A stretch of DNA of 64,000 nt, taken from contig PNMM01000004.1 of the NCBI GenBank assembly GCA_013823625.1, positions 1-64,000 on the forward strand, read 5' to 3'. The position numbers and the translations under genes were made by a program. Below, one piece after another: positions 32,412-59,923 of the stretch. The notes below the pieces were generated by a model. It was not told the origin of the DNA. It worked only from the letters and a program-made list of their open reading frames with translations, and searched no databases. The stretch is from Microbacterium sp. Its GTDB lineage: Bacteria; Actinomycetota; Actinomycetes; Actinomycetales; Microbacteriaceae. Positions within the stretch are counted from its first letter, which is position 1. Every line of letters begins with the position of its first letter.

Positions 32412-33098
32412 ATGGCGCGATCACGGGATGCCCTCACGCACGACCGCGTACTGCAGGCTGCCCTCGCCCTCGCCGACTCCGAGGGTCTCGAGGCGCTCAG
32501 CATGCGGCGACTCGGCACCGAGTTGGGGGTGGAAGCGATGTCGCTGTACCGCCACGTGCCCAACAAAGAAGCCCTGCTCGACGCCATGGTTGACGCGATC
32601 GTGCACGACTGGATCGACGACGAGGCCGTCCCCGCAGCCGACTGGCGCGGGCGCATCGCGGCGATCATGCACCGCGCGCACGCCACACTGCTCGCCCGCC
32701 CCTGGGCAATCGAACTCGTGACCGTTCGCCCTCGCGTGGGCGACGGTCGCTTGCGCTACGCCGAGGCGATTACGACGGCTCTGCTCGAGGCGGGCTTCAC
32801 CCCGCAGCTCGCGCACCACGGCCTGCACATCGTCGACGGAACCGTCATGGGCTTCACCGCGCAACAAGCCCGACGCCCCAGCGCCGCGGCACTCGGCGAC
32901 CGCGTGCACGCGCTGTACAACGGCGACCTCACGGCCGACTACCCGGGCATCAGCGTCACGATTCGCGAGCACCACGACCACGCCGAGGAGTACTCACTCA
33001 TGGTCGATCTCGTCATCGACGGGCTGGCTCGCTTGCGCGACGGCCTGCTCCCCCCGCGCACCGGTTCCGGGGCAAGCTACGTGCTCTCGCTCGCCTGA
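32412..33098 (+). CDS. TetR-family transcriptional regulator
   Basis: A 228-residue repressor-type protein. The N-terminal helix-turn-helix (ALALADSEGLEALSMRRLGT then SLYRHVPNKEALLDAMVDAI) is typical of TetR, and the C-terminal half resembles the TetR_C tetracycline-type ligand domain (ARPWAIELVT, HHGLHIVDGTVMGFTAQQA). AAGGAG lies six bases before the ATG. It probably represses the divergent dehydrogenase gene and itself through the palindrome between them. Effector unknown. Confidence 0.93.
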   Translation: MARSRDALTHDRVLQAALALADSEGLEALSMRRLGTELGVEAMSLYRHVPNKEALLDAMVDAIVHDWIDDEAVPAADWRGRIAAIMHRAHATLLARPWAIELVTVRPRVGDGRLRYAEAITTALLEAGFTPQLAHHGLHIVDGTVMGFTAQQARRPSAAALGDRVHALYNGDLTADYPGISVTIREHHDHAEEYSLMVDLVIDGLARLRDGLLPPRTGSGASYVLSLA

Positions 33099-33105
33099 AC
33101 CCGCG

Positions 33106-33264
33106 CTACGCGCGAGAGAACAACCGCGCGAAGAATCCAGGCTCGTTCTCGTGACCCTGGCAGCGATCCCGCTGCGGGATGCCGCGCATGACTTGCGCAA
33201 CGTGCTGACCGCACCCGCTCCAGCTGGCTTTGCCGCACTTACGACAGGTGGTTTGGTGACACAT
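33106..33264 (-). CDS. 52-residue Cys-rich zinc-ribbon-like protein under a CsoR-type operator
   Basis: Short gene with strong signals: GAAGGAG five bases before the ATG, and a coherent 52-residue product. The protein begins MCHQTTCRKCGKASWSGCGQ and continues with HVAQVMRGIPQRDRCQGHEN, giving five cysteines (2, 7, 10, 18 and 35) plus His3, His21 and His38 as possible metal ligands. Similar small 'CxxCGKxxWxGCGxHV' proteins occur widely in bacteria without a defined role. A perfect CsoR-type palindrome lies 38-53 bases upstream, so expression is probably metal- or sulfur-responsive. Zinc, copper or iron binding are all possible. Confidence 0.85.
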   Translation of the reverse strand: MCHQTTCRKCGKASWSGCGQHVAQVMRGIPQRDRCQGHENEPGFFARLFSRA

Positions 33265-33301
33265 CGTGGCTCCTTCAAGAGTGGTGCCACGATGCTATCA
33301 G

Positions 33302-33317
33302 ATACCCCCGGGGGTAT
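33302..33317. promoter_or_regulatory. CsoR-type operator
   Basis: The 16-base perfect palindrome ATACCCCCGGGGGTAT matches the A/T-flanked, C-run/G-run operators bound by CsoR-family repressors. On the minus strand it is followed by TATCTG as a candidate -10, and the small Cys-rich gene starts 38 bases on. A near-identical site lies at 59224-59240 in front of the CsoR-family gene of this window. Confidence 0.85.
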
Positions 33318-33318
33318 T

Positions 33319-33747
33319 TTAACGCTGCGTGCCGCTCCCTGAAAAGAATGCGTTGGCGCGCGGAGTCCACAGCCAGCTGAGCACGATCGCTGAAATCAGC
33401 ACGCTGATGATGCCGACGAAGAGGCCGACGCCGCCCGTCGTGATGGCGAGAATCTGCGACACGATCGAGATGCCTCGAACGATCGTGAAGATGAGGCGTG
33501 ACACGCGGCTGCCGCGAAGCAGGCCTCCCGCCACGATCAGCACGATGACGCCGGACACGATGATGGTGATCGCCGTCAGCAATCCACCCGGCAGGGGATT
33601 CGACACGAGGGCTGCCCCAGTGGCGATCACGAGCAGCATCGAGCCGCCGATGATGTCAAAGATGCCGCCGATGTAGGCGAGCACTCCGATGAACGTCACC
33701 CCAGCGGGGCGGCGAGGGTCAGTTGAAGACTGAGCGGGCTGCGTCAT
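33319..33747 (-). CDS. Four-helix membrane protein, unknown function
   Basis: A 142-residue protein with four hydrophobic segments: VTFIGVLAYIGGIFDIIGGS, LLTAITIIVSGVIVLIVAG, LIFTIVRGISIVSQILAI and GLFVGIISVLISAIVLSWLW. It looks like the small DUF-type membrane proteins common in actinobacteria; no function known. I chose the ATG at 33747 (MTQPAQSS) because residues further upstream lack membrane or family character. It is upstream of the CsoR box and the Cys-rich gene on the same strand, but the operator lies between them. Confidence 0.75.
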   Translation of the reverse strand: MTQPAQSSTDPRRPAGVTFIGVLAYIGGIFDIIGGSMLLVIATGAALVSNPLPGGLLTAITIIVSGVIVLIVAGGLLRGSRVSRLIFTIVRGISIVSQILAITTGGVGLFVGIISVLISAIVLSWLWTPRANAFFSGSGTQR

Positions 33748-33861
33748 GGGGCCACTGTAACGAAAAGGTGACAAACGCGACACGCCCGGGATTTCGGCTT
33801 GCACCTCGTGTCGCGCCGCCACTAGGTTCATCGAGCGCCACATGACGAAAGGAGGCCGACC

Positions 33862-33930
33862 GTGATGATTCGCTTTGCTCTGGGAATGATTCCCACCACC
33901 GCCGGCTTCGTCGGCGATCTCACCGCCTGA
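33862..33930 (+). CDS. Tiny ORF with a consensus Shine-Dalgarno; possible leader peptide
   Basis: AAAGGAGG at 33848-33855 precedes GTG-ATG codons with ideal spacing (six bases to GTG, nine to ATG). The frame codes for 21-22 residues, MMIRFALGMIPTTAGFVGDL-TA, then TGA. A run of six T follows at 33935-33940. No similar gene is known to me. The 237 bases from here to 34168 contain short CGCACACCGTG repeats and a TGACCGTC/GACGGTCA hairpin, but no other credible gene. It could be a leader peptide, a short membrane-active peptide, or the start of a decayed gene. Confidence 0.35.
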   Translation: MMIRFALGMIPTTAGFVGDLTA

Positions 33931-58932: not shown

Positions 58933-59214
58933 TCAGGTGCCGCGGTTCTGCTGCAGCTCATAGACCGCGATGAGCTCGGCCATCGCCTTCTCGCGCTCGT
59001 CACCGCCCGCCTCGAACATGTCGGTGACGTGGGTGCGCAAGTGGTTCTCGACGAGCAGCTTGTTGAGGCTGCGCAGGCTCTTCTGTACCGCGAGCGACTG
59101 CGTGATGATGTCGACGCAGTACTCGTCGGCCTCGATCATCTTCTCGATGCCGCGCAGTTGACCCTGCAAAATGCGAGAGCGATGCAAGGCCCGTTTCTTG
59201 ATGTCGTCGATCAT
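58933..59214 (-). CDS. CsoR-family transcriptional regulator (Cys-His-His variant)
   Basis: A 93-residue all-helical repressor of the CsoR/RcnR/CstR family, which releases DNA on binding a metal or persulfide. The core helix is RSRILQGQLRGIEKMIEADE followed by YCVDIITQSLAVQKSLRSLN. The copper ligands of canonical CsoR are Cys-His-Cys; here the positions are Cys33, His58 and His62 (VENHLRTHVTD), so the second Cys is replaced by His. The effector may therefore be copper, another metal, or something else. Its own operator lies in its promoter, and the transcript is probably leaderless. Confidence 0.93.
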   Translation of the reverse strand: MIDDIKKRALHRSRILQGQLRGIEKMIEADEYCVDIITQSLAVQKSLRSLNKLLVENHLRTHVTDMFEAGGDEREKAMAELIAVYELQQNRGT

Positions 59215-59220
59215 GCAGCA

Positions 59221-59249
59221 AAAATACCCCCCGGGGGTATTTTGGTCAA
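59221..59249 (-). promoter_or_regulatory. CsoR operator inside a leaderless promoter
   Basis: On the minus strand: TTGACC (-35), a 17-base spacer, then TATTTT (-10). The spacer and -10 contain the palindrome ATACCCCC-G-GGGGGTAT type site (59224-59240), so repressor and polymerase would compete. The ATG of the regulator gene starts seven bases after the -10, which places transcription start at or next to the A of the ATG. Confidence 0.8.
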
Positions 59250-59284
59250 GGCCGTCGCGCGTGGTCGCTGACTACAGTGTGCCC

Positions 59285-59923
59285 ATGATCATCACGAAGC
59301 GCGAGCACGCCTGCCTGATCGTTGACCACGCGGGCTCGACGCTCGTGATCGACCCCGGCAGCTTCACAGCCCCATTCTCGGTCAACGCACTCGCCGCGAT
59401 CGTTGTGACCCACGAGCACGGCGACCACGTCACGCGCGAGCACCTCGATCGACTGCTCGCTACCGCGCCCGGCGCCGTTGAGCTTTTCGCCCCCGCCGGA
59501 GTCGCCGCCGCGCATCCTGACTACCACTGGCAGATCGTGGGCGACGGCGACTCGCGGGCCGCGGGGCCGTTCTCGCTCACGTTCTCGGGCGCACAGCACG
59601 CCGAGATTCACCGCTCGATCCCGCTCGTCGACAACGTGGGTGTCTTCATCAACGAGACGCTCTACTACCCCGGCGATTCCTACACGGTGCCGGCACAGGC
59701 GGTACCGGTGCTCGCGGTTCCGGCGAGCGCGCCGTGGCTCAAGATCGGTGAGGTCATGGACTACCTCGATGCCGTACGACCCGCACGAGCCTTTCCGACG
59801 CACGAGCGCGCGAACTCTGATGCGGGCAACGCCATGGCGAATGCCCGCATCACCGCGGTCGTCGAGTCGCACGGCGGCAGCGTGACGGTGCTGCAGCCGG
59901 GCGACTCGATCGACCTGGGCTGA
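59285..59923 (+). CDS. Metallo-beta-lactamase-fold hydrolase (UlaG-like)
   Basis: A 212-residue metal-dependent hydrolase. The HxHxDH motif is at residues 43-48 (VVTHEHGDHV), with another His in FSGAQHAEIHRSI and Asp in YYPGDSYTVP; the compact size without extra domains is the UlaG/YycJ-like type. Substrate unknown. It is divergent from the CsoR-family gene, 70 bases apart, so the operator between them could also affect it. Start ATG; no obvious strong ribosome site. Confidence 0.88.
   Translation: MIITKREHACLIVDHAGSTLVIDPGSFTAPFSVNALAAIVVTHEHGDHVTREHLDRLLATAPGAVELFAPAGVAAAHPDYHWQIVGDGDSRAAGPFSLTFSGAQHAEIHRSIPLVDNVGVFINETLYYPGDSYTVPAQAVPVLAVPASAPWLKIGEVMDYLDAVRPARAFPTHERANSDAGNAMANARITAVVESHGGSVTVLQPGDSIDLG

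What the first reader, a model, noticed from the sequence alone, without database searches (positions are those of the whole stretch)
33106..33317. Tiny Cys-rich gene with its own CsoR-type operator, 26 kb from the CsoR gene
The window holds only two copies of the ATACCCCC(G)GGGGTAT palindrome: one at 33302 in front of a 52-residue, five-cysteine protein, the other at 59224 in the promoter of a CsoR-family gene. On the minus strand the sites even share flanks (AAAATA before, TAT after). This ties an uncharacterised zinc-ribbon-like micro-protein to a CsoR-family regulon and suggests it handles copper, another metal or reactive sulfur. The palindromes are seen directly; CsoR operator shape is established; the regulon and function are inference.
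Basis: partly seen in the sequence, partly recalled or inferred. Interest (0 to 1): 0.7.

Follow-up and report, generated by a model that had tools for sequence, protein, structure and literature searches.

The report
Tiny zinc-like protein in persulfide regulon

Summary
In detail: two palindromes, one 37 bp before a real, strongly conserved 52-aa gene. The attribution is corrected. The microgene's site is 16 bp (ATACCCC-N2-GGGGTAT); the site at the 59-kb CsoR gene is 17 bp (N3). In 40 genomes I found 131 such sites and classified 130: all 74 with a recognised sulfur or microgene target are N2, all 38 with a recognised copper-type target are N3, 18 are unassigned. A second CsoR-family protein outside the window has the two-cysteine CstR (persulfide-sensor) pattern and lies in an N2-controlled rhodanese operon. 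Published Streptomyces operators split the same way. In the 18 other genomes of the genus, 25 of 26 microgene homologues have an upstream N2 site, none an N3 site. Beyond the genus the operator is often missing, and the gene then usually follows rhodanese or CstR genes. The protein matches no Pfam or NCBIfam family and has an invariant Cys/His set suggesting zinc. Most likely it is a persulfide-induced zinc-thiolate microprotein that accepts or relays sulfane sulfur. Regulon membership is well supported; the biochemical role is inference.

The parts
33106..33264 (-). 52-aa cysteine-rich microprotein gene (stop codon included); M1 C2 C7 C10 G17 C18 G19 H21 C35 invariant in 47 aligned sequences (window plus 46 of the 80 loci)
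   Evidence: purifying selection
33270..33275 (-). ribosome-binding site AAGGAG, 5 nt before the ATG
   Evidence: sequence; AGGAG present in 9 of the 10 relatives printed
33292..33297 (-). candidate -10 box TAGCAT just downstream of the operator (inferred by eye; not returned by the consensus scan)
   Evidence: sequence, similar in L001-L004; one search did not list it
33302..33317 (.). 16-bp (N2 class) operator ATACCCCCGGGGGTAT, 37-bp gap before the microgene ATG
58933..59214 (-). CsoR-family regulator, ligand pattern C-H-H; probably the metal (copper-type) regulator, not the regulator of the microgene
59224..59240 (.). 17-bp (N3 class) operator ATACCCCCCGGGGGTAT between the CsoR gene and a divergent metallo-beta-lactamase-fold gene
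59285..59923 (+). metallo-beta-lactamase-fold hydrolase divergent from CsoR, sharing the N3 operator
   Evidence: PF13483; the same gene class at 11 N3 sites

Best explanation
The microgene is a member of a reactive-sulfur (persulfide) regulon controlled by a CstR-type, two-cysteine CsoR-family repressor encoded outside the window (G000:C1:576177-576401). Without sulfur stress, CstR sits on the 16-bp palindrome next to the candidate -10 box and shuts the promoter. Persulfide modifies its two cysteines, it leaves the DNA, and the microprotein is made together with a CoA-disulfide-reductase/rhodanese fusion, rhodaneses and a thioredoxin. The protein probably folds around zinc through C7-x2-C10 and C35 plus C37 or H38, with C2, C18 and H21 also invariant, and serves as a small thiol/zinc-thiolate acceptor or relay of sulfane sulfur for the rhodanese and thioredoxin systems. 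Shown by computation: operator class, its conservation, neighbours, regulator type. Inferred: actual CstR binding (about 0.9), metal binding (about 0.75), sulfur acceptor or relay role (about 0.4).
For: Own genome: the four N2 sites lie before the microgene, a rhodanese lipoprotein, the CoADR-rhodanese / rhodanese / CstR operon, and a thioredoxin; the two N3 sites lie before an HMA-domain P-type ATPase and the window CsoR. In 40 genomes 130 of 131 sites were classified: 74 sulfur/micro all N2, 38 copper-type all N3, 18 unassigned, no exception, Fisher 9e-31, related genomes not independent. Leaving out the microgene and CsoR-gene classes: 51 sulfur all N2, 25 copper-type all N3. In the 18 other same-genus genomes 25 of 26 homologues have an N2 site upstream, 24 of them at a 28-51 bp gap, none an N3 site. 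Phylum sample of 197 genomes, own included: CstR profile x N2 26 of 56 vs 4 of 141, p 4e-13; CstR x N3 p 0.50; micro x CstR 14 of 20, p 5.5e-5; micro x N2 11 of 20, p 1e-5; micro x N3 8 of 20, p 0.45; own dropped, the three micro values are 1.4e-4, 4e-5 and 0.61. Of 80 homologous loci 28 have a palindrome within 120 bp, of which 24 are 16 bp, 4 shorter, none 17 bp; 47 upstream genes of the other 52 gave Rhodanese 29, PF02583 6, PF03601 2, TauE 1. Literature: S. coelicolor ScCsoR, two Cys, sulfane-sulfur sensor, 16-bp ATACCn6GGTAT; S. lividans copper CsoR, TAC-X9-GTA, i.e. 17 bp; changing the spacing by one nucleotide weakened binding of a Thermus CsoR-family protein about 10- or 15-fold, and it and its CsoR paralogue hardly bound each other's sites. 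Ligand swap: of 157 unique microproteins each has C-x-C (66), a His within four residues of C35 (84) or both (7), none neither.
Against: No binding or expression data. In the phylum sample 6 of 20 genomes with the microgene gave no CstR-profile match and 9 of 20 no strict N2 site. The CstR profile's 56 matches go up to E 4.6e-4, so some may not be CstR. G006 of the same genus has CstR and an N2 site but no microgene match. One same-genus homologue (G001:C60) has no strict palindrome; 52 of 80 loci lack one within 120 bp, and 4 of the 28 found are 14-15 bp, not 16. Of the 47 upstream genes scanned several matched families unrelated to sulfur (UxuA, MMPL, MscL, HSP20, one each). The target classes were regular expressions written after I had seen the targets; seven non-microgene examples were confirmed by Pfam, as were the own-genome members. 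The AlphaFold model (mean pLDDT 79, pTM 0.52) had no PDB match at E<=0.001, so the fold and metal site rest on sequence.
Confidence: 0.75

Rival explanations
1. One reading: the window CsoR (58933-59214) represses the microgene, which handles copper or another metal.
For: Same half-sites and similar flanks; the two palindromes differ by a single base pair. RicR-controlled MymT is a known copper thiol microprotein (recalled, from no call).
Against: The microgene site is N2; no microgene site of 27 is N3 and no recognised copper-type target of 38 is N2. Three genomes with N2 sites and the microgene have a single PF02583 protein each, of the CstR type (G026, G033, G034). Micro does not associate with N3 across the phylum sample (p 0.45).
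Confidence: 0.05
2. The microprotein is in the CstR regulon but acts as a zinc buffer or metallothionein-like protein that catches zinc released when persulfide attacks zinc-thiolate sites, rather than as a sulfur carrier.
For: Cys/His ligand swap at the fourth ligand position; invariant C2, C7, C10, C18, H21, C35.
Against: Microgenes follow rhodanese or CoADR-rhodanese genes (ORF end within 200 bp) at 29 of 47 scanned loci, closer to sulfur transfer than to metal transport. I noticed no zinc transporter by eye among the N2 targets, but scored no class for it.
Confidence: 0.2
3. The microprotein is a regulatory partner, for example an adaptor that binds CstR, rhodanese or thioredoxin, or docks to the membrane through its C-terminal FFxRLF-like tail.
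For: PF02583 genes are the upstream neighbours at 6 of 47 scanned loci, and a CstR-profile match lies within about 420 bp in 7 of the 20 phylum-sample genomes with the microgene (G076, G077, G136, G170, G191, G220, G225). A hydrophobic-basic tail is present in 87 of 123 long forms.
Against: 34 of 157 unique forms are 42 aa or shorter and lack the tail, yet short-form matches in the genus also have N2 sites.
Confidence: 0.15
4. The palindrome is a terminator or structural element, not an operator.
For: It is a perfect palindrome immediately after the stop codon of the upstream gene on the same strand (ORF ending at 33319).
Against: The terminator scan found none; the element keeps a 28-51 bp gap to the start of 24 of 26 same-genus homologues, with different upstream genes in several relatives, and the same element precedes other genes.
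Confidence: 0.02

Closest known systems
ScCsoR (SCO0620) sulfane-sulfur circuit of Streptomyces coelicolor (PMC7533328, passages read)
   Same: Two-cysteine CsoR-family repressor; 16-bp ATACC-N6-GGTAT operators; rhodanese among the targets; actinobacterium.
   Different: The published targets are a persulfide dioxygenase, rhodanese, sulfite transporter and itself; no cysteine-rich microprotein appears in the passages read. Here the core operon is CoADR-rhodanese, rhodanese, CstR, with dispersed rhodanese, thioredoxin and microprotein genes.
Copper CsoR regulon of Streptomyces lividans (PMC3902906, passages read)
   Same: G-tract palindrome with TAC/GTA ends, CsoR family.
   Different: 17-bp spacing (TAC-X9-GTA) and copZA targets: matches the window CsoR site, not the microgene site.
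CstR of Staphylococcus aureus (recalled; named in the abstract and passages of PMC5016687 seen)
   Same: Family PF02583, two Cys 29 residues apart and no metal-binding His between: C-A-C in the C1 protein; rhodanese and CoA-disulfide-reductase-type targets (recalled).
   Different: Firmicute; no microprotein known to me in that regulon (recalled).
MymT, RicR-controlled copper thiol microprotein of Mycobacterium tuberculosis (recalled, from no call)
   Same: Tiny Cys-rich protein under a CsoR-family repressor.
   Different: The copper regulon and regulator type differ; sequences were not compared here.
Zinc-ribbon microproteins in general (recalled)
   Same: C-x2-C knuckle followed by C-x-C or C-x2-H.
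   Different: No Pfam or NCBIfam match for the window protein and only scattered weak ones, best E 0.0072, among 47 aligned sequences; no PDB sequence or fold match of note.

Membership tests
CstR/ScCsoR-type persulfide regulon (for the microgene) | 16-bp ATACC-N6-GGTAT operator at the promoter | tested here: met
   33302-33317; 25 of 26 same-genus homologues
CstR/ScCsoR-type persulfide regulon (for the microgene) | same operator class shared with sulfur genes and with the regulator's own operon in the same genome | tested here: met
   rhodanese, CoADR-rhodanese-rhodanese-CstR, thioredoxin
CstR/ScCsoR-type persulfide regulon (for the microgene) | direct binding by the regulator, relieved by persulfide | not testable with these tools
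   needs EMSA and expression data
CstR type (for the regulator G000:C1:576177-576401) | PF02583 fold with two Cys 29 residues apart and no His at the CsoR metal position | tested here: met
   PF02583 E 6.1e-22; C-A-C
CstR type (for the regulator G000:C1:576177-576401) | senses persulfide or polysulfide | not testable with these tools
   biochemistry needed
Copper CsoR regulon (for the microgene) | 17-bp TAC-X9-GTA operator | tested here: not met
   microgene sites are N2 in 27 of 27
Copper CsoR (for the window CsoR) | Cu(I) ligand set C-H-C (recalled) | tested here: not met
   C-H-H in the window and in one PF02583 protein of each of the 18 other same-genus genomes
Copper CsoR (for the window CsoR) | 17-bp operator shared with copper-type ATPase genes | tested here: met
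   59224-59240 and the HMA/E1-E2 ATPase site on C2
Zinc ribbon (for the microprotein) | four-ligand Cys/His site with Cys/His interchange | tested here: inconclusive
   pattern present in all 157 unique sequences; no family hit for the window protein, metal not measured

The most novel reading that the evidence does not exclude
An undescribed family of actinobacterial zinc-thiolate microproteins is a dedicated, persulfide-induced sulfane-sulfur acceptor or carrier that works with rhodaneses and thioredoxin, the reactive-sulfur counterpart of copper metallothioneins. Actinobacteria keep their copper and persulfide regulons apart by a one-base-pair difference in operator spacing (TAC-X9-GTA versus TAC-X8-GTA).
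Probability: 0.35. Interest if true: 0.7.

Novelty: new member of a known kind. Interest (0 to 1): 0.55.

Why it matters
Tiny cysteine-rich proteins are usually left without a function. Here comparative genomics gives one a regulator, an inducer class and partner genes, all testable with a few assays. It also corrects the inference from 'two similar palindromes in one window' to one regulon: one base pair of spacing separates copper-type from persulfide-type targets in the genomes read here, and that distinction could be used to annotate CsoR-family sites in Actinomycetota.

Tried and rejected
Tried without gain: Pfam and NCBIfam gave no family for the window protein and only scattered weak matches, best E 0.0072, for 47 aligned sequences; a PDB profile search gave one weak match, a cerato-platanin-like protein, E 0.29; AlphaFold followed by Foldseek against PDB gave nothing at E<=0.001; Rfam gave nothing in 32900-33900; the terminator scan gave none, and the promoter scan returned one site that is not the -10 I propose. 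Literature listings (titles and abstract starts) showed no paper that describes this microprotein; I read passages of four papers only, none whole.

Rejected: copper link through the window CsoR; terminator reading; spurious ORF (Ka/Ks 0.02-0.19).

Rows dropped or limits: the count covers 130 of 131 sites (the G024 site was fetched but not classified); 18 sites (8 N2, 10 N3) had no scored class and stand outside the 74/38 count, one of the N3 sites having only the hydrolase class, which I did not score. The class patterns were written after I saw; 'copper-type' rests on HMA/ATPase/DUF305 motifs and on CsoR itself, not on measured copper response. The first CsoR-type script failed to recognise most sequences because its pattern was too strict and was replaced. 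In one search G030 was counted as lacking CstR; its sequence, printed in the same call, is of the two-Cys type, so the true table is 24 of 27 rather than 24 of 26 CstR genomes with a strict N2 site, against 0 of 13. The CstR of G013 was inferred from position, not read. For Pfam 47 of the 52 loci without a palindrome were given; L014, L020, L052, L063 and L070 were left out because no whole upstream gene had been listed (by eye: L014 a CoADR-rhodanese end, L020 a rhodanese end, L052 a CstR). In one search the microgene of G195 (L319) was not recovered by expression.

Full report
Observation. The window holds exactly two copies of the palindrome, at 33302-33317 and 59224-59240, with none in 100 shuffles. 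The gene at 33106-33264 is real: it has a ribosome-binding site, homologues in actinobacteria (one search found 135 relatives and kept the best 80) and rough Ka/Ks of 0.02-0.19 against eight relatives. The first site is 16 bp (two bases between CCCC and GGGG, 'N2') and the second is 17 bp ('N3').

Own genome. Six such sites exist in 2.45 Mb, with none of the reversed control. N2 sites precede the microgene, a rhodanese lipoprotein, an operon of CoA-disulfide-reductase/rhodanese fusion, rhodanese and CsoR-family regulator, and a thioredoxin. N3 sites precede an HMA-domain P-type ATPase and the window CsoR (Pfam). The genome has two PF02583 proteins. The window one has the ligand pattern C-H-H and the other C-A-C, two cysteines 29 residues apart without the metal-binding histidine, which is the CstR pattern (recalled). 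ScCsoR of S. coelicolor, whose cysteines are Cys37 and Cys66, is described as 46% homologous to S. aureus CstR in PMC7533328.

Operator class and target. In 40 genomes (19 of the genus including our own, 21 others) I found 131 sites and none of the reversed control, and read 130 with flanks (loci, stretches; classes). Only N2 (82) and N3 (48) occur among the 130. Classes by expression: N2 micro 27, CoADR 18, rhodanese 14, thioredoxin 10, DUF4395 5, persulfide-dioxygenase-like 2, SQR-like 2, CstR 2, glutaredoxin 1; N3 copper ATPase/HMA 23, C-H-H CsoR 10, C-H-C CsoR 4, DUF305 4, with an MBL hydrolase at 11. A site can have more than one class. In sum 74 sulfur/micro sites are N2 and 38 copper-type sites N3, with no exception and 18 sites unassigned (8 N2, 10 N3). 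With the microgene and CsoR-gene classes left out the split is 51 to 25, again without exception. One example each of DUF4395, the SQR-like oxidoreductase, the MBL-plus-rhodanese protein, DUF305, glutaredoxin, the ATPase and the MBL hydrolase was checked by Pfam: DUF4395, DUF305 and glutaredoxin are confirmed by name; the SQR-like one matches only Pyr_redox_2/DAO; the dioxygenase-like one matches Lactamase_B plus Rhodanese; the ATPase matches E1-E2_ATPase; the hydrolase matches Lactamase_B_3. The genomes are related, so the p-value of 9e-31 overstates the evidence; the patterns were also written after seeing the data. Within the genus, 25 of 26 microgene homologues in the 18 other genomes have an N2 site upstream and none an N3 site.

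Phylum sample. In 197 genomes, own included, the microgene profile matched 20, N2 30, a CstR C-terminal profile 56 (E up to 4.6e-4) and N3 62. CstR goes with N2 (26 of 56 against 4 of 141, p 4e-13) and not with N3 (p 0.50). The microgene goes with CstR (14 of 20 against 42 of 177, p 5.5e-5) and N2 (11 of 20 against 19 of 177, p 1e-5), not with N3 (8 of 20, p 0.45); with the own genome dropped the three values are 1.4e-4, 4e-5 and 0.61. In 7 of the 20 genomes a microgene lies within about 420 bp of a CstR match, and in several of the 20 stretches fetched it sits near CoADR, rhodanese, thioredoxin or MBL-like frames (by expression).

Neighbours. Of the 80 loci, 28 have a palindrome within 120 bp (relaxed pattern): 24 are 16 bp, 4 are 14-15 bp (L042, L053, L059, L067), none 17 bp. 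Of the other 52, 47 upstream genes were scanned: 29 matched Rhodanese, 15 Pyr_redox_2 (the CoADR part), 6 PF02583, 3 DUF2202, 2 PF03601, 1 TauE, the rest matched unrelated families or none. Thus where the operator is absent the gene is more often than not carried behind a sulfur gene or CstR.

Literature. S. coelicolor ScCsoR binds 16-bp ATACCn6GGTAT sites and is released by sulfane sulfur (PMC7533328, passages). S. lividans copper CsoR uses ATATACCCCTNAGGGGTATAT, TAC-X9-GTA (PMC3902906, passages). In Thermus, adding or removing one nucleotide between the repeats weakened TTHA1953 binding about 10- or 15-fold, and TTHA1953 and its CsoR paralogue hardly bound each other's sites (PMC10318464, passages). 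The genome pattern therefore matches measured preferences.

Protein. Invariant in 47 aligned sequences: M1 C2 C7 C10 G17 C18 G19 H21 C35. Among 157 unique sequences collected by a pattern that itself required C2, C7, C10 and C18, all have H21, and each has Cys at +2 (66), His within four residues (84) or both (7) after C35, none neither. Cys/His interchange is typical of zinc ligands (established knowledge). The AlphaFold model is moderately confident (mean pLDDT 79, pTM 0.52) and matches no PDB fold. Forms of 42 aa or fewer (34 of 157) lack the tail, and short-form matches in the genus also carry N2 sites.

Mechanism. CstR-type repression at the N2 operator, relieved by persulfide, is the best-supported reading. 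The role of the protein as sulfur acceptor or relay is inferred from cysteine content and partners; zinc buffering or a regulatory partner role remain open.

Noticed in passing
window 58933-59923: The CsoR-family gene has a C-H-H ligand pattern rather than the C-H-C recalled for copper sensors, yet its N3 operator class is shared with the HMA-type ATPase; a metallo-beta-lactamase-fold gene is divergent from it. Each of the 18 other same-genus genomes also has a C-H-H protein.
   Followed up: partly
L209 (G007:C1:1859490-1859806): Two microgenes, one long and one short form, stand in tandem behind one N2 site, divergent from a second CstR-type gene.
   Followed up: partly
L195, L219, L228, L237, L250 and L010, L039, L045, L061, L069: DUF4395-class genes behind N2 sites (Pfam checked for L195), and DUF2202 (3) and PF03601 (2) genes upstream of microgenes: candidate further members of the persulfide regulon.
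   Followed up: partly
G113 (phylum sample): 22 N2 palindromes in a 2.9-Mb genome; the next highest of the 197 sampled has 9.
   Followed up: no
plasmid records, e.g. NZ_CP088077.1:62953-63117: Relatives of the microprotein match 68 of 72,556 plasmid records, mostly Rhodococcus (33) and Clavibacter (16); no annotated feature lies under the 20 listed matches.
   Followed up: no
G005, G010, G011: These same-genus genomes have a C-H-H CsoR gene but no strict N3 site.
   Followed up: no
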